Of a DNA stretch of 64,000 bases, positions 34,922-51,022 are shown one piece after another. A program made the position numbers and the translations under genes. The DNA is taken from contig NZ_OU659204.1 of NCBI RefSeq assembly GCF_915403165.1, positions 248,001 to 312,000 of the forward strand. Direction: 5' to 3'. The notes beneath the pieces are model-generated. The model was not told where the DNA came from. It saw only the letters and a program-made list of their open reading frames with translations, and made no database searches. The DNA is from Providencia alcalifaciens. Its GTDB lineage: Bacteria; Pseudomonadota; Gammaproteobacteria; Enterobacterales; Enterobacteriaceae. Position 1 is the stretch's first letter, and each line of letters starts with the position of its first letter.

Positions 34922-35149
34922 TTATTTATGATTGATGTCTAATAAGGATTGAATATCAATATTAAAATAATTCGCATATTGGCCTAATCTATCTAAATTA
35001 ATTCTATTTATCCCCCTTTCGTAGCGTGATTGTTGTTGTTCACTAACACCTATAGTGTTAGCAAGTTCCTTTAATGTAACTCCGTTCATTTTTCGATAAT
35101 AAATAATTTTACTACCAACCATTGTAGATATGGGATAGTTTTTATTCAT
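34922..35149 (-). CDS. MrpJ-type HTH regulator B (fimbrial operon 1)
   Basis: 75-residue HTH protein, nearly only the DNA-binding domain. The motif V-S-E-Q-Q-Q-S-R-Y-E-R-G-I-N-R-I-N-L-D-R-L is almost the same as in regulator C, so B and C are tandem duplicates. They are separated by about 200 AT-rich bases with no visible gene. Probable fimbrial/motility switch regulator, by analogy with MrpJ. Confidence 0.75.
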   Translation of the reverse strand: MNKNYPISTMVGSKIIYYRKMNGVTLKELANTIGVSEQQQSRYERGINRINLDRLGQYANYFNIDIQSLLDINHK

Positions 35150-35351
35150 ATTGAGCCTTCTGGTGAGTAAATTTATAAACTAAAATAAATAAACCTTAAT
35201 TTAAATGGTTGAAAAAATAGGATAATATCAATGTAGATAACAACCTAGCACTAATTCGTACATGAAACTAGAGTATTAGACTAATAAATAAAGTCTATTT
35301 TTCTAAATATTTTGTGGTTTACTGATATTTTGGTTATCATTATTTGATTAT

Positions 35352-35609
35352 TTAAATAGGGTCTTTTTTCATGTTGTTTATTTCCTGCTCACTAATATTA
35401 AAAAAATCGATTAAATCGACTCTAAATATTTCAGCATACTGATTAAGGCGATCCAAATTAATGCGATTAATTCCACGTTCATAGCGAGATTGTTGCTGTT
35501 CACTAACATTGATTATTTTGGCTATATCATAGAGTGACATACCACTCATTTTTCTATAATAGGTAATTTTCCCACCAATAATTCGGGAGATAGTATAATA
35601 TTTAGGCAT
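35352..35609 (-). CDS. MrpJ-type HTH regulator C (fimbrial operon 1)
   Basis: 85 residues, 39 bases after the last minor pilin gene, so likely cotranscribed. I-G-G-K-I-T-Y-Y-R-K-M-S-G-M-S leads into V-S-E-Q-Q-Q-S-R-Y-E-R-G-I-N-R. GGAG-like AAGGAG precedes the ATG. First of three regulators in this operon. Confidence 0.8.
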   Translation of the reverse strand: MPKYYTISRIIGGKITYYRKMSGMSLYDIAKIINVSEQQQSRYERGINRINLDRLNQYAEIFRVDLIDFFNISEQEINNMKKDPI

Positions 35610-36669: not shown

Positions 36670-37641
36670 CTATTCATAGCGAATATTAACAGTAGCATTG
36701 GCATTGGCTGTACCCGGTGTAATTGCTGCTGCAGTTTTAATATAACGGGCTTTCCAACCAAAAATATAATCTGTTTGGGTCACACCACCTTGCTGAGTAA
36801 ATTCTTGATTTAACACAATAGGCGTTCCGGCATTATTTAATAATTGAATTGCAACTCCAGTCGCCTTATTTGCACCAGTTAAACCTAATCGGCCATTTGC
36901 CGCATTATCGATCGTATCTGAGGTTACGGTAACTTTAATATTGGAGCCAGAGAGGCAACTTAAAGCAATAGGAATATTAACCATACCTTGTGTATCATTA
37001 ATATTTTTAAATTGAGTGTCATACCAATCTCCCATATTAATATTGTATGTGTTTTGATTATTTTTTAATGAACAGCTAAGAACATTAATTTTTATTGTGT
37101 TAGCTGGCATATTTAATGTTGTTAAATACCAAGTGCCACTTGGTGTTGTATTAGTTTGAGTTAATTGTGCAATCGCACCAGAGCGTATGGAGCCTGTTGA
37201 TGTGACTTGGCCTGTTTTCTTTATAGTTATAAACCATACCGTATCAAATATTTGCCAAGGCATTTTGCCAGGAGTACCTGGACCAAAAGTCGCATTAAAA
37301 TTACCAATTGCGGCGGTGGTAACCACAAGACCTATTCCTGAAATATTGCTAGGCGCTATTTGGGCTGAGTTTGGTGCCCAACCATTCATATAATTACCTT
37401 TTAGGTATGAAGTACCACATTCACCATCTTGGTTGGCATATGTATTAGCGCCATTTAAATATCTAATGGATATTGTTTCAAGATCTCGTTGCCCTAAGTC
37501 ATCATATTGTATGTTGTAGGTTCTTGGAGGAACACCGATTTGAATATTGCTAAAGCTTGAATTTTGAATACATGCGGCACTCAGATATCCTGAATATAAA
37601 TATCCTAGTATTAATATGGATTTAATTATTAATTTTTTCAT
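36670..37641 (-). CDS. Two-domain fimbrial tip adhesin 1 (operon 1)
   Basis: 323 residues with signal peptide (about 1-22, ending L-S-A before A-C-I-Q-N). The N-terminal domain (about 23-185) is not a pilin domain and is probably the receptor-binding lectin. It is related to that of adhesin 3 but not adhesin 2. The C-terminal pilin domain starts near I-N-V-L-S-C-S and ends A-T-V-N-I-R-Y-E. AAGGAAG precedes the ATG at 37641, 13 bases after the usher gene. Ligand unknown. Confidence 0.82.
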   Translation of the reverse strand: MKKLIIKSILILGYLYSGYLSAACIQNSSFSNIQIGVPPRTYNIQYDDLGQRDLETISIRYLNGANTYANQDGECGTSYLKGNYMNGWAPNSAQIAPSNISGIGLVVTTAAIGNFNATFGPGTPGKMPWQIFDTVWFITIKKTGQVTSTGSIRSGAIAQLTQTNTTPSGTWYLTTLNMPANTIKINVLSCSLKNNQNTYNINMGDWYDTQFKNINDTQGMVNIPIALSCLSGSNIKVTVTSDTIDNAANGRLGLTGANKATGVAIQLLNNAGTPIVLNQEFTQQGGVTQTDYIFGWKARYIKTAAAITPGTANANATVNIRYE

Positions 37642-42014: not shown

Positions 42015-42335
42015 TTATTTAAACAGTGAAAAATCTTGCTCTGGTGAAATCAACGATTCGGCCTGATAGCGAAGGCTGCGATCAGCCTTACAGAAATAAT
42101 TAAAACCATCTTCTTGTTCAGTACCATCACAGACTAATTCTTTAATATCGACGTCTAAAATTTCAGCGATGGAATATAAGGTATCAACGTGAATACGCAT
42201 ATCGCCCAGTTCATGGCGGGAATGGTGTTGTTGGCTAATGCCCAATAATTTGCTTAACTGTTGAATGCTCATATTTCGCTCTTTTCTGAATGAGCGAATG
42301 CGAGCTCCAACAATTTTGGAGGTGTTCTTTTTCAT
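42015..42335 (-). CDS. MrpJ-type HTH regulator D (fimbrial operon 2)
   Basis: 106-residue HTH protein. The recognition helix G-I-S-Q-Q-H-H-S-R-H-E-L-G-D and the following I-H-V-D-T-L-Y match regulator A. The longer C-terminal tail contains a Cys and ends Q-D-F-S-L-F-K. ATG at 42335 preferred to a TTG at 42347. Last gene of operon 2. By analogy it links fimbrial expression to motility genes. Confidence 0.8.
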   Translation of the reverse strand: MKKNTSKIVGARIRSFRKERNMSIQQLSKLLGISQQHHSRHELGDMRIHVDTLYSIAEILDVDIKELVCDGTEQEDGFNYFCKADRSLRYQAESLISPEQDFSLFK

Positions 42336-42366
42336 TATAATGACCAATATTGATTAAGTAGAAATA

Positions 42367-42639
42367 CTATATATTTTGAGATGTTTTAAGACTTTGCTTT
42401 ATTTTTTCCCTTTCATTCTCATTAAATAAAAAGAAGTCATTAATACTCGTATTGAAATAAATAGCATATTGTTTGAGCCGATCAATCGATATTCGATTAT
42501 TCCCACGCTCATAACGTAGCTGTTGCTGTTCACTAATTCCAATCGACTGAGCTACAGTGAGTAGGGATAGCCCTTTTTCTTTACGTAATTTTCGTATTTT
42601 ATATCCAATAACAGCGGAGACTGGATAGCTATTTTCCAT
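42367..42639 (-). CDS. MrpJ-type HTH regulator E (fimbrial operon 2)
   Basis: 90 residues. V-I-G-Y-K-I-R-K-L-R-K-E-K-G-L-S, then I-S-E-Q-Q-Q-L-R-Y-E-R-G-N-N-R-I-S-I-D-R-L, the same class as regulators B and C. AGAGGTG precedes the ATG at 42639. The frame further upstream (to 42693) is not homologous. It lies 272 AT-rich bases after the minor pilin gene, so it could have its own promoter. Confidence 0.8.
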   Translation of the reverse strand: MENSYPVSAVIGYKIRKLRKEKGLSLLTVAQSIGISEQQQLRYERGNNRISIDRLKQYAIYFNTSINDFFLFNENEREKIKQSLKTSQNI

Positions 42640-42911
42640 CAATTCACCTCTTTTTATTATTTGCGATATGTTAAATAAACTAACAGATAGCAAATGAATT
42701 TTATTACCTCAAAGATATGTTTATCAGTTATTTATATTGATATCTTGACTTAAATCACATCAATTAAAGTTATCCATTTTATATGGAGGTTAATAATTAA
42801 AATTTCAATTAGAGAATGCTATTTTTATCCTATTAATAATGCTTTTCATAATAAGAGCATTGTATTCAGATTATCTTTAACGGATAACCATATGAATATC
42901 ATATTCCTTTA

Positions 42912-43406
42912 TTAAGGATATATAACTGAAAACTCTAAATGGCTTTTAAAATCTCCAGCAGTAAACATAGGCTGTAAACTTACCATTCTTGCAGATAGTG
43001 GAATTTCTGCACTTTTAGTGGTGCTATTGATTGTAATATCTACCGTGCTGCCATTTTTAATCGTGGCTTTATTACTCGTTTTCGCGAGATGCAGCAAGCT
43101 GCCAGTGGAGCTCCCTGTATTCACAAAATAGTTATTGTCGATGGTATCGGGTGTTCCATTAATGCTGAATTTGGCATTTTTTGTTGTCACAGGGCAATCA
43201 ACCAGTTTAATAGAAAAATCCACCCACGGGCTTTGGGCTGGGTTACGATAATTCCAACGATTTATCTTACCGAGCTCCACGTTATAACTGGCATTTTCTA
43301 CTTTGCAGGGCATGGTAATCACATTGCCATGCACCTTAATATTGACGGTTTCTGCCATTACAGGTAGCGCTAATAATCCCAATACACTGAATAAAAATAT
43401 TTTCAT
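42912..43406 (-). CDS. Minor fimbrial subunit 2b (operon 2)
   Basis: 164 residues, signal peptide ending P-V-M-A before E-T-V-N-I. Nearly the same sequence as minor subunit 1b of operon 1, including R-W-N-Y-R-N-P-A-Q-S-P-W-V-D-F-S and L-E-F-S-V-I-Y-P at the end. Cys pair conserved. Last structural gene of operon 2. Confidence 0.86.
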   Translation of the reverse strand: MKIFLFSVLGLLALPVMAETVNIKVHGNVITMPCKVENASYNVELGKINRWNYRNPAQSPWVDFSIKLVDCPVTTKNAKFSINGTPDTIDNNYFVNTGSSTGSLLHLAKTSNKATIKNGSTVDITINSTTKSAEIPLSARMVSLQPMFTAGDFKSHLEFSVIYP

Positions 43407-43415
43407 TATTCGCTC

Positions 43416-43931
43416 CTATAGATAAGTAATGGTGGCAGTAATATTGGCGGATAAGGTGCCTGCGGTACCATTACCGAGTGAGGATAATGCCCGTGTACGT
43501 AGAGGAACACTCACCAAAGATTGCCCATTGGTGGGAACGGTTAATTCTTTAGTATTACCGAGCGGCGTTGTGCCATCGCCACTTTGCAGTTGAATGGCAA
43601 TATTGGTGGCGGTGCCGCTATTTTTATACAGACTGTTGATATCCGCGTTATCCCCTGAACCTGTGAAGGTTAATTTCACATTATTGATATATGCGGAGCA
43701 ATCTTTTAATTCAATATTAAACGTTTTCCAAGGTGAGGCACCTTGTGCATGAATAAAGGAATCTAAACCTATATTCGTAAGGTCAACATCAATATTATTT
43801 CCAGCAGATAAATTACAGGTTGCTGATTTAATATTACCGGTAAAGTTTAGTTTAACTACGCTTGCGGAATAAGATAATAAAGGCATTCCTGTGGAGCTTA
43901 GGAATAAAAATAGCAAAATATTTTTTCTCAT
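43416..43931 (-). CDS. Minor fimbrial subunit 2a (operon 2)
   Basis: 171 residues. Signal peptide ends S-Y-S-A before S-V-V-K-L-N-F-T-G-N-I-K. Counterpart of subunit 1a, with the Cys pair and T-I-T-Y-L C-terminus. AAAGG precedes the ATG at 43931. The longer frame into the adhesin gene is not used. 9-10 base gaps to the genes on either side. Confidence 0.86.
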   Translation of the reverse strand: MRKNILLFLFLSSTGMPLLSYSASVVKLNFTGNIKSATCNLSAGNNIDVDLTNIGLDSFIHAQGASPWKTFNIELKDCSAYINNVKLTFTGSGDNADINSLYKNSGTATNIAIQLQSGDGTTPLGNTKELTVPTNGQSLVSVPLRTRALSSLGNGTAGTLSANITATITYL

Positions 43932-43941
43932 TATATGACCT

Positions 43942-44979
43942 TTATTCATAACGAATATTGACGGTTGCACTGGCATTTGCTGTGCCGGGAGTGACTGTAT
44001 TTGATGTCTTAATATAACGGGCTTTCCAGCCAAAAATATAATCTCCTTCAGGTACATTATCTTGCTGTGTCCACTGGGTATTTAAGGCTATAGGGTTACT
44101 GGCATTATTTAATAATTGTACAGCAATGCCTGTGGCTTTATTGGAGCCAGTTAAACTTAGCTTACCTGTCGATGCATTATCGATAGCATCGGATGTGACA
44201 TTGACTTTAATATTCGTCCCTGCAGCGCAGGATAAAGTAATTGGTATATCTATATTGCTACTCGTATCTCCAATATTTTTAAATTGGGTATCATACCAAT
44301 CACCTAATTTAATATCGTAGGTGTCTTGTTTTAAAGAGCAATTCAGTACATTGATATAAATAGAGTTTGGTCTAATTGATAAAGTTGCATTCCGATAGAA
44401 GGTAGCACCTGCAGCTGCATTACGATTAGATTTTGTCGCGATCATGCCACTATTAATATATCCAGACTTAGTTACAGGGCCTGTTTTTACAAGAGTAAGC
44501 GTAAATTTAGCAGGACTTCCATGCTCAATGCCAAACGCACTTGAATCAGCAATCCAGGCTACATATGGAAAATATTTGGAGGATTCGCAAGTAGGGCAAG
44601 CAATTGATGGAAATCTAACATACTGAGAAATCCCTAAGATGTTAGTTGCAAAAGGAGCTTGAGATGCATACCCATTAGCATAAGCAGTTTGCATATAGAG
44701 TGTCCCAATATTGGGGTTTCTAGACGCTAAACCTTTACACTGGGCATTAAAATCTTGACCTCCATTATTTACGAAGAAACTTAATGGAACATTAGAGTTT
44801 GAACTAATTGTTTCTAGATTCCCTGTAAAGGTACTATCAAATGGGATAGTAATAATATGGTTACCCTCTATAAAAGCTTCTCTAATAGGCTGGCCTGAAT
44901 AACAGTTATAAGCAGCATTAGCTTTGCCTATGCCGAAAAGTAAAATAATAGTCGAGGTTAATAATGTGATGATTTTCAT
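43942..44979 (-). CDS. Two-domain fimbrial tip adhesin 2 (operon 2)
   Basis: 345 residues, signal peptide to about 23 (A-N-A before A-Y-N-C). The C-terminal pilin domain is close to adhesin 1 (both end T-V-N-I-R-Y-E and share F-G-W-K-A-R-Y-I-K-T). The N-terminal receptor domain is unrelated to that of adhesins 1 and 3 and contains extra Cys residues (A-C-P-T-C-E). The ATG overlaps the usher stop codon by one base (TAATG), so translation is normally coupled. The upstream nonsense codon may lower its expression. Confidence 0.82.
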   Translation of the reverse strand: MKIITLLTSTIILLFGIGKANAAYNCYSGQPIREAFIEGNHIITIPFDSTFTGNLETISSNSNVPLSFFVNNGGQDFNAQCKGLASRNPNIGTLYMQTAYANGYASQAPFATNILGISQYVRFPSIACPTCESSKYFPYVAWIADSSAFGIEHGSPAKFTLTLVKTGPVTKSGYINSGMIATKSNRNAAAGATFYRNATLSIRPNSIYINVLNCSLKQDTYDIKLGDWYDTQFKNIGDTSSNIDIPITLSCAAGTNIKVNVTSDAIDNASTGKLSLTGSNKATGIAVQLLNNASNPIALNTQWTQQDNVPEGDYIFGWKARYIKTSNTVTPGTANASATVNIRYE

Positions 44980-47468
44980 TACTGGCATACCGCCTCCATT
45001 TTATATAAACCAATATAATTCGGTAATCCCGCCAAGTTATAATTCACTTGGCATTGTTGCTTATCGTTATATTGAATCGTAAATGAACCACTTTCCGGCA
45101 TTCCTGACAGATAAATTTCTCCGTCATTACCTACCATCGCATTGAGCTGATTATTGCTTGGGAAAATTGCCTGCGCCCCGAATGGTACCGGTTTGCCATC
45201 TTTAAAATGCAAGGTCATGATGGCACGATAGCCTACATTGGCATTAAAGCTAGCTTTGGCAATTGCCCCACGGCTTGGTGCCACATTCTGAGTGGTTAAC
45301 TCCATTTCGGTATCATCCGGCAATTTACTGGTATCAATTTGGATACCATTGCTGCGATATGCAGTGACATACGGCACCAACGCATAGCCTTGCCCGTTGG
45401 TTTGGATACCTGTTTGGTTCAGAATCGGGACATTAGCGGCATCGGGGATTTCCACCAATGCTGCGGTTTCACCCAGTTGCTGACCGAGAACTACCCCTCC
45501 AGAATGAGCGACCACACTGCCGCTGGCACCGTAATACAGGTTGTAATTATTGGTGCTGTAACCCGTGCCACCGGAAACTTCCCCATATTGCCCACGGTAG
45601 CTGGCATTTAAGTTACCGGAAGCCCCAGAATCGCGGGTTGGGAAGTTTTGCTGAGCACCCCAGTTCAAGCGATTATCCAGTTACGTTGCCGAAACCCCCA
45701 TGCTGCCCGAGGAGCCATTGCTACTGCTGTTCGTGCCATTAAGGTTGTAATAAAAAGTGCTATCAAACAGGCTAAATGGCACGCTAACCGTAAAGGCAAA
45801 CTGGTGGTCATCGTCTTTATTGCGGCCATCGTAGTTATTTGGGTTGGTGTTTTTGTTATAGCTATAATTCACACCATAGCTAATGTCGTTCCAGCTATTG
45901 TTATAGCCAATGGTTGTAGACTGGGTTTTGCGATCGCTATTCCAGTAATCTTCGCTCACAAAACCTACCGACAAGGAGCCCCAGCCGTCACCTAAACTTT
46001 GGCTAAGGGTAATTTCTCCGCGGTTACGGCGGCGCTCATGCAAGGCGGTAAATGCTTCTTTTCGATAGCCATCAAACACTTCCGACAAGCTATAAAACCC
46101 TTTAGTGGAATAACGATAGCCCGCTAAAGCGATGTTAGTGCCGATATCATTCAGGTTTTTGTTATAGCGAAAGCGGTAGGATTGTCCGCTCTCTTTTTCA
46201 CTGTTACTGAGGGTCGAACTGGCGTGGGTGACATCGATAGATAATGCACCAAATCGCCCTAAGTTTTGCCCTGAGCCGATGGAGTAAGCCTGATATTTGT
46301 CACTGACTTGGCTTCCGCCAAACAGAGTCACCCCCCAAGGTAGTCCGTAAGTTAGTGCAAATTGCGCAAAGGTTTTTTTATCTACGCTGCTGTCATAACT
46401 GCGGTATTGCCCGCCCGTCACGCTATAGGAGAGATAGCCTTCCCGTTGCAAAACAGGCAAAGAAGCAAAGGGGATAATTTGGTACTGTTCACTACCGTTG
46501 GCTTCTTTAATCGTGACGTGTAAATCACCACTACCCCCTGTAGGGTAGAGATCGTTGATTTCAAACGGACCCGCTGCCACATCGGTTTGGTAAATGGTGT
46601 AACCGTTTTGACGAATGGTGATCTGCGCATTACTGCGCGCAATACCCCGTACCACTGGCGCATATCCACGCAAGCTTTCTGGGTTCATATCATCGTCAGT
46701 GGAAAGCTGCACCCCACGAAACGGTACACTGTCAAAAATATCGGACGGTGATGAGCTGTCCCCAAGGATCAGCTGACTTTTTATCGCATTGATATTACGG
46801 CTTAAATAGGTATATACCGTGTCCCATTTATTGCGTTGCCCATCACTACTTTGCCACGTCGTGTAGTTGCGCAGACGCCACGGACCGATATTCAGTCCCG
46901 GGCGCAAGTTCACATAGTTGGAATTGCTGCTGTTTTTATCGTTTTTACGATCGGTATTGCGCGAGCCGTTATAACTGTAATTGAGTAACAGCGCGGTGAT
47001 CCCATCGTCGATCGCCGCGAGATCCACATAACCGCGCGGGTTCATGTTCAATGCAATCTGCGGAATGCTCAAATACAGGCGCTGAGAACCAAACTCAAAC
47101 TCACTTTTGGCATCAGGGATAGCAGATAAATTAATGCATTGGTTACCCGCGATTTGCAGCTCAGGGTATTCCCCGATTTTAACCCCAACATCTTTCAGGT
47201 CAGAGAGCGTTAAGCAAGGCTCCAGTTCATTATTTTTATTGGTGGAAAAGCTAACACTTTTTGAGCCAATCAAGCTCTTATTAATGTAGATATCCACATA
47301 GTATTGCCCCGGTAATTGTTCATTACGCTCAAACTGTTCTAAGTCCACGGATTCTTTATTCGGTAGCTCAAGAAATTCAGGATCAAAATAGGTATCCGTT
47401 TCTGCCGAAGACGTCGCAATATAGCCTAGAGATAAAAATAGGCTAAGGCATATTTTATTTATTTTCAT
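44979..47468 (-). pseudogene. Outer-membrane fimbrial usher 2, interrupted by an in-frame TAA
   Basis: The frame is continuous for 829 codons apart from a single TAA at codon 596 (45681-45683). Usher 1 has Gln (CAA) at the same place in S-A-T-Q-L-D-N-R, and both flanks stay in the same frame and almost identical. So one C-to-T change truncates the protein to 595 residues. The truncated protein keeps the N-terminal domain, plug and much of the barrel but loses the last strands and both C-terminal domains. It is unlikely to work unless the stop is suppressed. Signal peptide and start are intact. Confidence 0.93.
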
Positions 47469-47492: not shown

Positions 47493-48164
47493 CTATATTT
47501 TTATTTCTACTGGATTATTAGCGGAACCATAATCATTAATGACTTCCCATTTAATGGTTCCGTGTAATTCAGGATTATTTATATTGAAATTTTTCTCTGA
47601 AAATGGGGCAACATAAGAAATATTCTCTGCGCTCTTTCCGTTAAATTTAATACTCTGGAAGTTCATGTAATAAGGGGTTGGGTTATTAACAGTAATGACT
47701 TTACTATTTTTCGACCACTTAAGTTTATTTTGTTCTTCATTAAAATCGACATTCGCTAGTGAATCAGGGCGATAAATTAATTTCATCTGAGTTTTGAATG
47801 CGATCTTTAGTGAGTTTTCTGATTTCTTCTCTGTTGCAGGAATTGTTTTTACATTTAACCAAAATAAAGATTCTCTATCTTTAGGTAGAGTATCTTGAGT
47901 TAGAAATATACGTAGCGCATTTGTCTTTTCTTGATTTAAACGAAAAAGTGGTGGCGTAATGGTAAAGTCCGTTTGCTTACCTTCATTGGCATTTTCAATC
48001 CATGATTGAATTAAATAAGGAACTTTATCCGGATTTTCCACGCTAATGCTCACGTCTTTCTTCCCTTCAGGATAAATGACGCGGGTACCGCCAATAATGA
48101 CACCGGCATTGGCTGTACTGATGAGTGTGAAAAAAAAGATAAAAATAGTAATTATTGATTTCAT
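47493..48164 (-). CDS. Periplasmic fimbrial chaperone 2 (operon 2)
   Basis: 223 residues, a close duplicate of chaperone 1, with G-V-I-I-G-G-T-R-V-I-Y-P-E-G-K-K-D and Q-M-K-L-I-Y-R-P. Divergence is concentrated in the second domain (after residue 135). Intact, 24 bases before the interrupted usher. Confidence 0.95.
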   Translation of the reverse strand: MKSIITIFIFFFTLISTANAGVIIGGTRVIYPEGKKDVSISVENPDKVPYLIQSWIENANEGKQTDFTITPPLFRLNQEKTNALRIFLTQDTLPKDRESLFWLNVKTIPATEKKSENSLKIAFKTQMKLIYRPDSLANVDFNEEQNKLKWSKNSKVITVNNPTPYYMNFQSIKFNGKSAENISYVAPFSEKNFNINNPELHGTIKWEVINDYGSANNPVEIKI

Positions 48165-48200
48165 ATAGCCACCACTGAGTTATAGCAAAAATAAATCACT

Positions 48201-48224
48201 AAGGCTTATATCCCTATAAACCTT
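48201..48224 (-). terminator. Pilin-chaperone intercistronic hairpin (operon 2)
   Basis: AAGGCTTATA-TCCC-TATAAACCTT, the same hairpin as in operon 1 with a single base change in the loop. The stem is fully conserved. Confidence 0.7.
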
Positions 48225-48233
48225 AAATTGAAG

Positions 48234-48764
48234 TTAGTTATAATTAATTGTGAATGTTGCCGTTGAGTTTGCTAAACCAGCACTGACAGCATCAGACATC
48301 GCAATATAACGTGCGGTGAAATCTAAATTATTCACAACTGTTTCTTTTAGGGCATATTCACTGGATGTTGTATATAAAGGAACTGTGATCCCTTTAACGT
48401 CTTGAATTTGAATACCAACATCTTTAGCAATTCCAGATGTTCCCGCGTTGGTTAACTGCAGAACGCTGCTATCACCAGCATAAGAAACACCATCAAATTT
48501 TACCGTTGCAGTGGTCACTGCTGCAGGGCAATTTTCTAATTGAATGGAAAACTTAGTGGCAGCGGCAGTACTACCAGTACTGGCTAATGATGTTTTAGAA
48601 ACTTTACCTAAGTTCACTTGAATAGCATCAGAACCGGATGCTAACTGACAGGCGTTATCGGTAATTTCGCCTGTGAAATTAATATCACCATCTTTGGCAA
48701 AGCCATTAGCAGAAATTAATAAAGTTCCTGTTGCAATTAACGATGCAATAATCTGTTTTTTCAT
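48234..48764 (-). CDS. Major fimbrial subunit (pilin) 2
   Basis: 176 residues, a near copy of pilin 1. Signal peptide ends G-F-A before K-D-G-D-I-N-F-T-G, Cys pair present, C-terminal donor strand T-A-T-F-T-I-N-Y-N. Most differences lie at surface-type positions. First gene of operon 2. Confidence 0.93.
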   Translation of the reverse strand: MKKQIIASLIATGTLLISANGFAKDGDINFTGEITDNACQLASGSDAIQVNLGKVSKTSLASTGSTAAATKFSIQLENCPAAVTTATVKFDGVSYAGDSSVLQLTNAGTSGIAKDVGIQIQDVKGITVPLYTTSSEYALKETVVNNLDFTARYIAMSDAVSAGLANSTATFTINYN

Positions 48765-49234: not shown

Positions 49235-49498
49235 TTATTTTTTATTAAGATAATGCAAAATAAATTTTTTCTCCGCTTCACTAAATATAAAAAAGCTTAA
49301 TAAACTAATCTCAAAATAATTGGCGTATTGTTTTAGTTTATCGACGGGAATTCGATCTTTTCCTTTTTCATATTTCAATTGTTGAAATTCGCAAACACCA
49401 ATCTCATCAGCTAATTCTTTTAATGATAAATGATGATGTTCACGAATCAGTTTTATTTTATGTCCAATAATTTCGGATATTGTATGATTTTCATTCAT
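49235..49498 (-). CDS. MrpJ-type HTH regulator F (fimbrial operon 3)
   Basis: 87 residues. It has the scaffold of regulators B, C and E (I-I-G-H-K-I-K-L-I-R, then Y-E-K-G-K-D-R-I-P-V-D-K-L). The recognition helix is changed to V-C-E-F-Q-Q-L-K-Y, so two of the family's signature positions are replaced. It probably binds a different site or has lost binding. AAAGG precedes the ATG at 49498. 23 bases after the minor pilin gene. Confidence 0.75.
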   Translation of the reverse strand: MNENHTISEIIGHKIKLIREHHHLSLKELADEIGVCEFQQLKYEKGKDRIPVDKLKQYANYFEISLLSFFIFSEAEKKFILHYLNKK

Positions 49499-49521
49499 AA
49501 ACAAACCTTTGTGGTATGTGA

Positions 49522-50028
49522 TTAGTTATAGGTCATAATAAACTCGACATGGCTGCGAAAAGTTCCCGCAACCATGGCACTATTCAAGCTAGTGACACGT
49601 GCAGAAAAAGGAATTTCAGCTTGGCGAGTTTGTAAGTTAATTGGGGTTGTAATTTGGGTTCCGTTTTTTACACGGCTTAAACGGGTTCCCGTGACTAAAT
49701 CTAATGCCACATTTTTTGCTGTGCCACTGTTGATAAAATAATCTGCATTAGTGGGCGCGGCTGTTCCTGTTAACGTCATAACAGATTCGCGGGTATTACT
49801 AGGGCAATCTTTTAATTTAATACTAAAACTTACCCATGGAGCTTGTTGACCATTGCGAAGGTTTGCAATGTTAGTTGTTTTCAAATCAATCACATAATTA
49901 GTTTGTTCTATCTGGCAAGGAGCCGCTTTTATATTGCCTTTAAAATTTAAAGTGATGCTATCTCCTGCTACACAGTAGAAGCTTAATAATGGTCCAAAAA
50001 AAATGAAAGAAATCCAGTTACTTTTCAT
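49522..50028 (-). CDS. Minor fimbrial subunit 3 (operon 3)
   Basis: 168 residues. Signal peptide to about 21 (C-V-A-G before D-S-I-T-L). Pilin fold with Cys pair (A-P-C-Q-I and K-D-C-P-S) and a C-terminal strand ending E-F-I-M-T-Y-N. Operon 3 has one minor subunit where operons 1 and 2 have two. Its features resemble the 1b/2b type (P-W-V-S-F-S-I-K-L). Confidence 0.85.
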   Translation of the reverse strand: MKSNWISFIFFGPLLSFYCVAGDSITLNFKGNIKAAPCQIEQTNYVIDLKTTNIANLRNGQQAPWVSFSIKLKDCPSNTRESVMTLTGTAAPTNADYFINSGTAKNVALDLVTGTRLSRVKNGTQITTPINLQTRQAEIPFSARVTSLNSAMVAGTFRSHVEFIMTYN

Positions 50029-50036
50029 CGTCGCTC

Positions 50037-51011
50037 CTATTCATAGAGAATATTAACAACAGCGGTGGAGTTAGCTACTCCTGGGGTAATCGTCGGAGCT
50101 GTTTGTATGTAGCGTGCTTTCCAGTTAAATAGGTAATCCCCATTGGGGACATTATCTTGTAAGTTATTTTTGTAATTTAAACGAATGGGATTACTATTTT
50201 TATCTAAAAGTTGAATGGCAATGCCCGTTGCTGAGTTATTACCGAATAATTTTAGTTTTCCTGTTGTTTCATCTACATATCCCGCATTACTGGTGATTGT
50301 TGCTTTTATATTGGTACCAGCCATACAAGTAAGGACGACAGGAATTGCAACGGGGGTACTTGTGTCGTTAATGTTCTTAAATTGGTTTTCATTCCAATCC
50401 CCCATATCAATGTTGTACGTTTTGCTTTTTGTTGAGCAGCTTAATACGTTAATACGAATAGCGTTTGATGACATATTGAGGGTAGTTAAATACCACGTTG
50501 AATTGGTTGGTCTGGTATTTGTTTGGTACAGCTGGGCGACGCGTCCAGAAGTTAACGTACCCGCTTGTGTTATTCTTCCTGTTTTTCTGATCACGATACG
50601 CCACTGAGTGTCAGTAATATTCCAGTTTGGAGGGTTTCTACCCGGAATAAAAAAATTGAACCAAGTATTTGCTCCTGTTAGTACTGCCATACTGATGCCA
50701 GGAATATTTGTTGGGGCAAAATTGTTTACAGGTGTCCAACCATTAACAAACCGACCATGCAAGTCAGTGGTACCGCAATCCCTACCGTTACTGGCATTAG
50801 TATCCATTGGTCCTGTGCCGTAAGGTATTACGATGGTATCTAAATCTTTAACCGTTATATCATCATACATAATGCTGAATGTTCGATTTGGTACAGTGAA
50901 CTGTAAATTCATAAATCTAGGATTTTGAATACATGCAGCAGCTGCATGTTGCGAATACAGAAATAAACTCATCAACATAAATATCAGTTTTAGTGAAACA
51001 GAACGGTACAT
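50037..51011 (-). CDS. Two-domain fimbrial tip adhesin 3 (operon 3)
   Basis: 324 residues, signal peptide to about 26 (H-A-A-A before A-C-I-Q-N-P). The N-terminal domain is of the same class as adhesin 1 (R-T-F-S-I-M-Y-D-D, T-W-Y-L-T-T-L-N-M). The C-terminal pilin domain ends T-A-V-V-N-I-L-Y-E. AGAGG precedes the ATG at 51011. Ligand unknown. Confidence 0.82.
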   Translation of the reverse strand: MYRSVSLKLIFMLMSLFLYSQHAAAACIQNPRFMNLQFTVPNRTFSIMYDDITVKDLDTIVIPYGTGPMDTNASNGRDCGTTDLHGRFVNGWTPVNNFAPTNIPGISMAVLTGANTWFNFFIPGRNPPNWNITDTQWRIVIRKTGRITQAGTLTSGRVAQLYQTNTRPTNSTWYLTTLNMSSNAIRINVLSCSTKSKTYNIDMGDWNENQFKNINDTSTPVAIPVVLTCMAGTNIKATITSNAGYVDETTGKLKLFGNNSATGIAIQLLDKNSNPIRLNYKNNLQDNVPNGDYLFNWKARYIQTAPTITPGVANSTAVVNILYE

Positions 51012-51022
51012 ATAAGCCTCTT

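What the first reader, a model, noticed from the sequence alone, without database searches (positions are those of the whole stretch)
43942..44979. Adhesin 2 has a replaced N-terminal receptor domain
Operons 1 and 2 are close duplicates in pilin, chaperone, usher and minor subunits, and their adhesins share the C-terminal pilin domain. The N-terminal domains are unrelated. Adhesin 1's instead matches that of the much more distant operon 3. Domain exchange would change receptor specificity while keeping the assembly module.
Basis: partly seen in the sequence, partly recalled or inferred. Interest (0 to 1): 0.7.

Follow-up and report, generated by a model that had tools for sequence, protein, structure and literature searches.

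The report
Swapped receptor domain on pilus adhesin
In a Providencia bacterium, one pilus-tip adhesin differs sharply from its counterparts while the pilus-building genes around it stay nearly the same; comparison across the genus indicates that this gene position was likely re-equipped by DNA exchange again and again, which would let the bacteria change what they stick to without rebuilding the pilus.

Summary
The divergence is real, but "unrelated" is wrong. Adhesin 2's receptor domain is a distant relative of adhesin 1's (33% over 132 residues, E 3e-9; Smith-Waterman 113 against a shuffle maximum of 57). Both resemble the Abp/MrkD receptor-domain fold.

Operon 2 is 88-100% identical in DNA to its counterpart in congener G009, except for one block from the usher stop (44978) to about 43650 in the next minor-subunit gene. 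The block holds the whole adhesin gene, not only its N-terminal half. Congener G008 carries the nearest adhesin-2 relative beside an usher only 72% identical.

This is one case of a genus pattern. Over 31 operons with a usable usher part, receptor-domain identity does not track usher identity (Spearman -0.006, 465 pairs). In 11 of 14 pairs with usher dS below 0.5, receptor-domain dS exceeds 1.2. One pair shows the reverse: a shared receptor domain between older flanks (dS 0.16 against 0.99 and 1.26). A second adhesin position beside the regulators behaves clonally.

Operon 2's usher has an in-frame stop, so adhesin 2 may not be displayed. Receptor specificity is untested.

The parts
43942..44979 (-). 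Adhesin 2 gene: two-domain tip adhesin, ATG overlapping the usher stop (alternative ATG at 44988; residue numbers below count from 44988)
   Evidence: Open frame; PF00419 in the C-terminal part, E 1.3e-17
44344..44913 (-). Receptor domain of adhesin 2 (residues 26-215)
44587..44598 (-). C131-P-T-C134, a CxxC in a loop found only in the adhesin-2 type among 32 aligned receptor domains
   Evidence: Alignments; letters; low model confidence here
43945..44343 (-). Pilin (assembly) domain of adhesin 2 (residues 216-348)
   Evidence: PF00419 residues 216-348; 70% to adhesin 1
43650..44978 (-). Divergent block against the matching operon of G009; likely the imported segment (3' edge approximate)
   Evidence: 45-75% DNA identity inside, 88-100% outside apart from windows straddling the edges; 5' edge at the usher stop, 3' edge near 43657
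43416..43937 (-). Minor subunit A of operon 2; the block ends inside this gene
42912..43406 (-). Minor subunit B of operon 2
   Evidence: 80% to operon 1, 92% to G009
44979..47468 (-). Usher of operon 2, interrupted by an in-frame stop
   Evidence: Two open stretches in one frame, each 90-93% to usher 1
45681..45683 (-). In-frame TAA, codon 596 of the operon 2 usher
47493..48764 (-). Chaperone (48164-47493) and pilin (48764-48234) of operon 2
42015..42693 (-). Two small HTH genes after operon 2
36670..37641 (-). Adhesin 1 (operon 1 runs 41443-35649)
50037..51014 (-). Adhesin 3 (operon 3 runs about 54812-49522, one minor subunit)

Best explanation
Adhesin 2 is a predicted two-domain pilus-tip adhesin whose gene, together with the start of the next gene, was likely brought in by homologous recombination into an otherwise conserved operon, replacing the earlier adhesin. 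Shown: a sharp block of divergence from the usher stop to about 43650 against the matching operon of a congener, and the nearest relative of the adhesin beside a much more distant usher in another congener. Shown across the genus sample: the position between usher and minor-subunit genes carries receptor domains whose identity does not follow that of the assembly genes. Inferred: incoming DNA pairs with the conserved usher end on one side and with the pilin domain or minor-subunit gene on the other, so a new receptor domain arrives fused to a compatible assembly domain. Inferred and untested: each domain type binds a different receptor. In this genome the usher of operon 2 is interrupted, so adhesin 2 is predicted to be displayed poorly, or only with help from the operon 1 usher.
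For: Block with edges against G009 operon 2: dS 0.32 in the usher C-terminal part and 0.27 in minor B, but 1.42 in the well-aligned pilin domain. G008 relative: receptor domain 65%, pilin domain 86%, usher part 72%, minor B 44%. No correlation of receptor domain with usher over 465 pairs, while pilin, chaperone and minor subunits follow the usher (Mantel 0.76-0.84, 27 operons). The receptor-domain data reject the usher clade and the usher data reject the adhesin-2 trio. Reverse pattern in G001-G009: receptor domain dS 0.16 between flanks at 0.99 and 1.26. Same family at the second position is clonal (Mantel 0.83, n 13) against 0.20 at the first (n 32).
Against: Receptor domains near 30% identity align poorly, so their dS is unreliable. 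Edges at gene and domain borders would also arise from fast divergence; only the pilin-domain dS and the few reverse-pattern pairs separate the two. In one search, 19 pairs passed the reverse filter, most of them saturated and without weight. No donor with near-identical sequence was found for adhesin 2; against G008 DNA identity inside the adhesin varies from 48 to 84%. The 19 pairs share operons, and the clades tested were chosen after the trees were seen. Mantel for the receptor domain is weak, not zero (0.18, p 0.028). One genome per species.
Confidence: 0.83

Rival explanations
1. No exchange: after duplication the receptor domain of adhesin 2 diverged in place under strong diversifying selection while the assembly genes stayed conserved.
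For: Receptor domains are homologous and edges tend to sit at gene and domain borders, as selection on one domain would also give.
Against: Synonymous divergence is also raised in the pilin domain (1.42 against 0.32 in the usher) and into the next gene. The adhesin-2 type recurs beside ushers of 72% and 74% identity. G001 and G009 share a receptor domain at dS 0.16 between older flanks.
Confidence: 0.07
2. Hidden paralogy: the ancestral operon carried several adhesin genes in tandem and lineages lost different ones, so unlike genes now face each other.
For: 15 stand-alone adhesin genes exist at a second position in 14 of 20 loci, and a Salmonella operon with two adhesin genes is in print (PMC3373541, passages).
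Against: The block in operon 2 ends inside minor subunit A, not at a gene end. No locus examined holds two adhesins between usher and minor A. Second-position domains are at most 54% to first-position ones. Loss does not explain dS 0.16 inside older flanks.
Confidence: 0.05
3. The operon is decaying: with a broken usher, adhesin 2 is no longer displayed and its divergence has little functional meaning today.
For: In-frame stop in the usher; ushers are also interrupted in three congeneric loci, L046, L054 and L055.
Against: The adhesin frame is intact with conserved cysteines and motifs, and the same type occurs with open ushers in two congeners. Decay does not produce a homologous alternative domain, so this can be true beside the exchange. 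An assembly error at the stop is not excluded.
Confidence: 0.1

Closest known systems
MrkD, adhesin of type 3 fimbriae (Klebsiella and others)
   Different: In that study single-gene trees agreed with each other; here receptor domain and usher trees conflict
Abp1D and Abp2D of Acinetobacter baumannii (tip adhesins; receptor domains 8df0, 8dez, 8dka)
   Different: About 16-19% identity in the fold alignments; adhesin 2 has a longer CxxC loop; binding of fibrinogen (PMC9942807, passages) is not tested here
ste fimbriae of Salmonella (two predicted adhesin genes)
   Same: Two predicted adhesin genes in one operon and signs of recombination between them (PMC3373541, passages)
   Different: Here the two positions behave differently, one exchanged and one clonal; recombination between them was not seen
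PapG classes of P pili (recalled, no call)
   Same: Different receptor domains on otherwise conserved assembly genes
   Different: Recalled only; not compared here

Membership tests
Two-domain chaperone-usher tip adhesin (FimH-like architecture) | C-terminal pilin domain | tested here: met
Two-domain chaperone-usher tip adhesin (FimH-like architecture) | N-terminal beta-rich receptor domain joined by a linker | tested here: met
   Two-domain model; Abp2D receptor domain over model residues 4-190
Two-domain chaperone-usher tip adhesin (FimH-like architecture) | Location at the pilus tip and receptor binding | not testable with these tools
   Needs microscopy and binding assays
MrkD-like receptor domain (Pfam PF22003) | Profile match above the curated cut-off | tested here: not met
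   Adhesin 2: 23.5 bits against 27, E 5.3e-5; 26 of 32 aligned domains match at E up to 1, best 1.7e-10. I call it related, not a filed member
MrkD-like receptor domain (Pfam PF22003) | Fold of the MrkD/Abp receptor domain | tested here: met
UcaD/F17G-like lectins | Sequence or fold match to UcaD or F17G | tested here: inconclusive
   Not among the listed matches, which excludes nothing
Programmed adhesin switching from silent cassettes (pilS- or shufflon-like) | Silent copies in the genome that match the expressed copy | tested here: not met
   In the loci fetched, second-position domains are at most 54% to first-position ones; the own genome gave no further near copy
Programmed adhesin switching from silent cassettes (pilS- or shufflon-like) | Dedicated recombinase or recombination sites | not tested
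   Only three upstream regions were scanned for inverted repeats

The most novel reading that the evidence does not exclude
Providencia pili of this family have a dedicated receptor-exchange position: between usher and minor-subunit genes, receptor domains of nine groups are swapped between operons and species by recombination anchored in the conserved usher end and pilin domain, while a second adhesin position beside the regulators is kept clonal as a fixed adhesin. The tandem duplicate operons widen the displayed set, and the duplicate with a broken usher here keeps one alternative adhesin in store.
Probability: 0.45. Interest if true: 0.7.

Novelty: new variant of a known kind. Interest (0 to 1): 0.55.

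Why it matters
Tip adhesins usually decide what tissue or surface a bacterium sticks to. A genus in which the receptor domain is decoupled from its assembly genes while a sister adhesin position stays clonal is a natural comparison of what drives adhesin turnover, and it warns that typing such fimbriae by usher or pilin would not predict binding. It also gives a set of divergent relatives of the MrkD/Abp fold, one type with a CxxC loop, for receptor work.

Tried and rejected
Unrelated domain: rejected by direct comparison. Operon 3 as donor of adhesin 1's domain: its 51% is exceeded by congeners at 62-65%, and the receptor-domain data reject adhesin 1 plus adhesin 3 as one clade (p-AU 0.001). 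Second-position adhesins as donors: no match above 54%. Promoter inversion: only weak, AT-rich or hairpin-type repeats in the three upstream regions scanned. Adhesin-2 type outside the genus: in a class-wide sample of 369 genomes searched with the receptor domain, the own genome and one weak partial match (E 9.8e-4, two stops); a family-wide sample of 392 searched with the whole adhesin gave matches at E below 1e-50 only in the own genus and in genus code g83, and otherwise matches mainly over the pilin domain. UcaD was considered from memory; its structures did not appear among the listed matches, which excludes nothing. GC of the block is 36.2% against 42.5% for the operon genes upstream of it, but adhesins 1 and 3 are also low (35.9%, 38.5%), so this shows nothing about import. 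Naming the species by its small second contig: no plasmid match.

Rows dropped: G005's broken first-position adhesin was left out of the domain split; G022's short usher piece was left out of usher comparisons, hence 31 operons and 465 pairs; five rows were left out of the domain clustering (G005 two, G011 two, G013 one). Four of the 24 genomes searched in the genus (own included) had no match at E 1e-15, and no stretch of them was fetched. Fetched stretches were at most 20 kb, so the census of operons and second-position genes is incomplete. Of the 19 pairs listed as having lower dS in the receptor domain than in the usher, I lean on one (G001-G009) and cite G008-window; most others are saturated and carry no weight.

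Full report
What is there. The window lies in a Providencia genome: contig lengths of congeners in the genome search equal those of named Providencia records; the species itself is not named by any search. Three chaperone-usher operons run on the minus strand next to glnG-glnL (gene names from general knowledge of the translated sequences). Operon 1 (41443-35649) and operon 2 (48764-42912) have pilin, chaperone, usher, adhesin and two minor subunits; operon 3 (about 54812-49522) has one minor subunit. Adhesin 2 is 44979-43942; its ATG overlaps the usher stop.

Check of the observation. Protein identities between operons 1 and 2 are 88% (pilin), 85% (chaperone), 90 and 93% (two parts of the usher), 74% and 80% (minor subunits), but 36% of 170 columns for the receptor domain and 70% for the pilin domain of the adhesins. 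Between 1 and 3 the usher is 57-61%, yet the receptor domain is 51%. Other alignments put receptor domain 1-2 at 28-37%. So the mismatch is real. The domains are nevertheless related: BLASTP of the two N-terminal domains gives 33% over 132 residues, E 3e-9; the Smith-Waterman score 113 exceeds all 500 shuffles (maximum 57); a profile of three adhesin-2-type domains against adhesin 1 gives E 7.6e-8. Pfam MrkDrd matches both below its cut-off.

The block. The operon of congener G009 that matches operon 2 (pilin 97%, chaperone 96%, usher C-terminal part 98%, minor B 92%) is 88-100% identical in DNA along operon 2 and its regulators in 150-base windows, except for one block (45-75%) and the windows that straddle its edges (82 and 84%). 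Identity drops at the usher stop (44981-44979) and returns at about 43650 inside minor-subunit gene A (fitted edges -1 nt from the usher stop and +285 nt past the adhesin stop). Inside the block synonymous divergence is 1.42 (pilin domain), against 0.32 in the usher part and 0.27 in minor B. G009's pilin domain and minor A are 90% and 92% to those of window operon 1; those of window operon 2 are 70-75% and 67-74% to the four other operons of this usher clade. The block is therefore most simply the incoming piece in the window. Its nearest relative is G008's adhesin (receptor domain 65%, pilin domain 86%), which sits beside an usher 72% identical in its C-terminal part; G017 has a third member (58%, 61%; usher part 74%). 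DNA identity to G008 inside the adhesin is uneven, 48-84%, so G008 is a relative, not the donor.

Genus pattern. Of 24 genus genomes searched, own included, 20 had a match. Nineteen fetched loci and the window gave 33 adhesins directly after an usher (first position); 32 could be split into domains. Over 465 pairs (31 operons with a usable usher part), usher identity and receptor-domain identity are uncorrelated (Spearman -0.006), while usher and pilin domain correlate at 0.44. For 27 complete operons, Mantel r with the usher is 0.76 (pilin), 0.79 (chaperone), 0.77 and 0.84 (minor subunits), 0.47 (pilin domain) and 0.18 (receptor domain, p 0.028). The receptor-domain data reject the usher clade of five (p-AU 5e-43), the pilin-domain data reject it too (p 0.003), and the usher data reject the adhesin-2 trio (p 5e-4) (quick trees with long branches, clades chosen after the trees were seen). 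Receptor domains at both positions and in Proteus (53 adhesins) fall into nine groups at 45% single linkage, each with first-position members.

Exchange or fast change. Of 14 operon pairs with usher dS below 0.5, 11 have receptor-domain dS above 1.2. The receptor-domain values rest on poor alignments, so two other facts carry the argument. In all 11 of these pairs dS is also higher in the better-aligned pilin domain (0.61-2.78) than in the usher (0.24-0.49). And G001 and G009 share a receptor domain (96%, dS 0.16) between older flanks (usher 0.99, pilin domain 1.26, minor A 1.2), with DNA identity 96-98% across most of the domain and 65-92% around it. A filter for receptor-domain dS below 0.6 of usher dS listed 19 pairs; most are saturated and carry no weight. 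In 19 pairs with usher C-terminal identity of at least 93% and receptor-domain identity under 45%, the fitted 5' edge lies between -19 and +98 nt of the usher stop in 19 of 19. The 3' edge lies within 60 nt of the linker in 12 of 19 and further on in 7 of 19: four inside the pilin domain and three beyond the adhesin stop. These pairs share operons, and such edges alone would also fit fast divergence.

Second position. Fifteen stand-alone adhesin genes lie 3' of the minor-subunit genes, beside the regulators, in 14 of the 20 loci (one is split into two frames); the window has none. In eight Proteus loci this is the only adhesin position seen in the operon. There, receptor and pilin domains evolve together (Mantel 0.83, n 13; Proteus 0.76, n 8), against 0.20 at the first position (n 32). 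Receptor-domain identity follows glnG identity at the second position (0.58, 36 pairs) and not at the first (-0.06, 290 pairs). No first-position domain exceeds 54% to a second-position one, so the second-position genes seen here are not the donors.

Function. The usher of operon 2 has an in-frame TAA at codon 596, and the frame goes on after it. From general knowledge of ushers, such a break should stop secretion through it. Whether the 90-93% identical operon 1 usher can serve adhesin 2 is unknown. Receptors are unknown for all three adhesins.

Known and new. MrkD is the most variable gene of its operon, with agreeing single-gene trees (PMC2900259, passages); a Salmonella operon with two adhesin genes and signs of recombination is in print (PMC3373541, passages); PapG classes are recalled. 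A Providencia genus study mentions fimbriae by presence only in the passages seen (PMC7652902). Searches for Providencia fimbrial adhesins and for adhesin recombination listed no paper whose title or start of abstract describes receptor-domain exchange in this family; most were seen as listings only. I call it a new variant of a known kind.

Noticed in passing
window 45681-45683: In-frame TAA at codon 596 of the operon 2 usher; the frame continues after it. An assembly error is not excluded.
   Followed up: partly
L040 3623-4615, L042 3136-4116, L044 3227-4219, L037 11190-12170 and others: A second, stand-alone adhesin gene 3' of the minor-subunit genes beside the regulators: 15 genes in 14 of 20 loci; in eight Proteus loci it is the only adhesin position seen in the operon.
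   Followed up: yes
L046, L054, L055: Ushers of this family are also interrupted in three congeneric loci, by different breaks; L046 also lacks a first-position adhesin.
   Followed up: no
L041 5562-6541: First-position adhesin of G005 is split into two overlapping frames.
   Followed up: no
L045 3373-4380: G009's stand-alone adhesin groups with first-position receptor domains instead of the conserved second-position type.
   Followed up: partly
window 34922-35609, 42015-42693, about 49238-49525: Each operon is followed by one or two small HTH genes (some sharing a SEQQQ-RYERG motif) that differ between operons; they recall MrpJ-type fimbrial regulators (name recalled, not tested).
   Followed up: no
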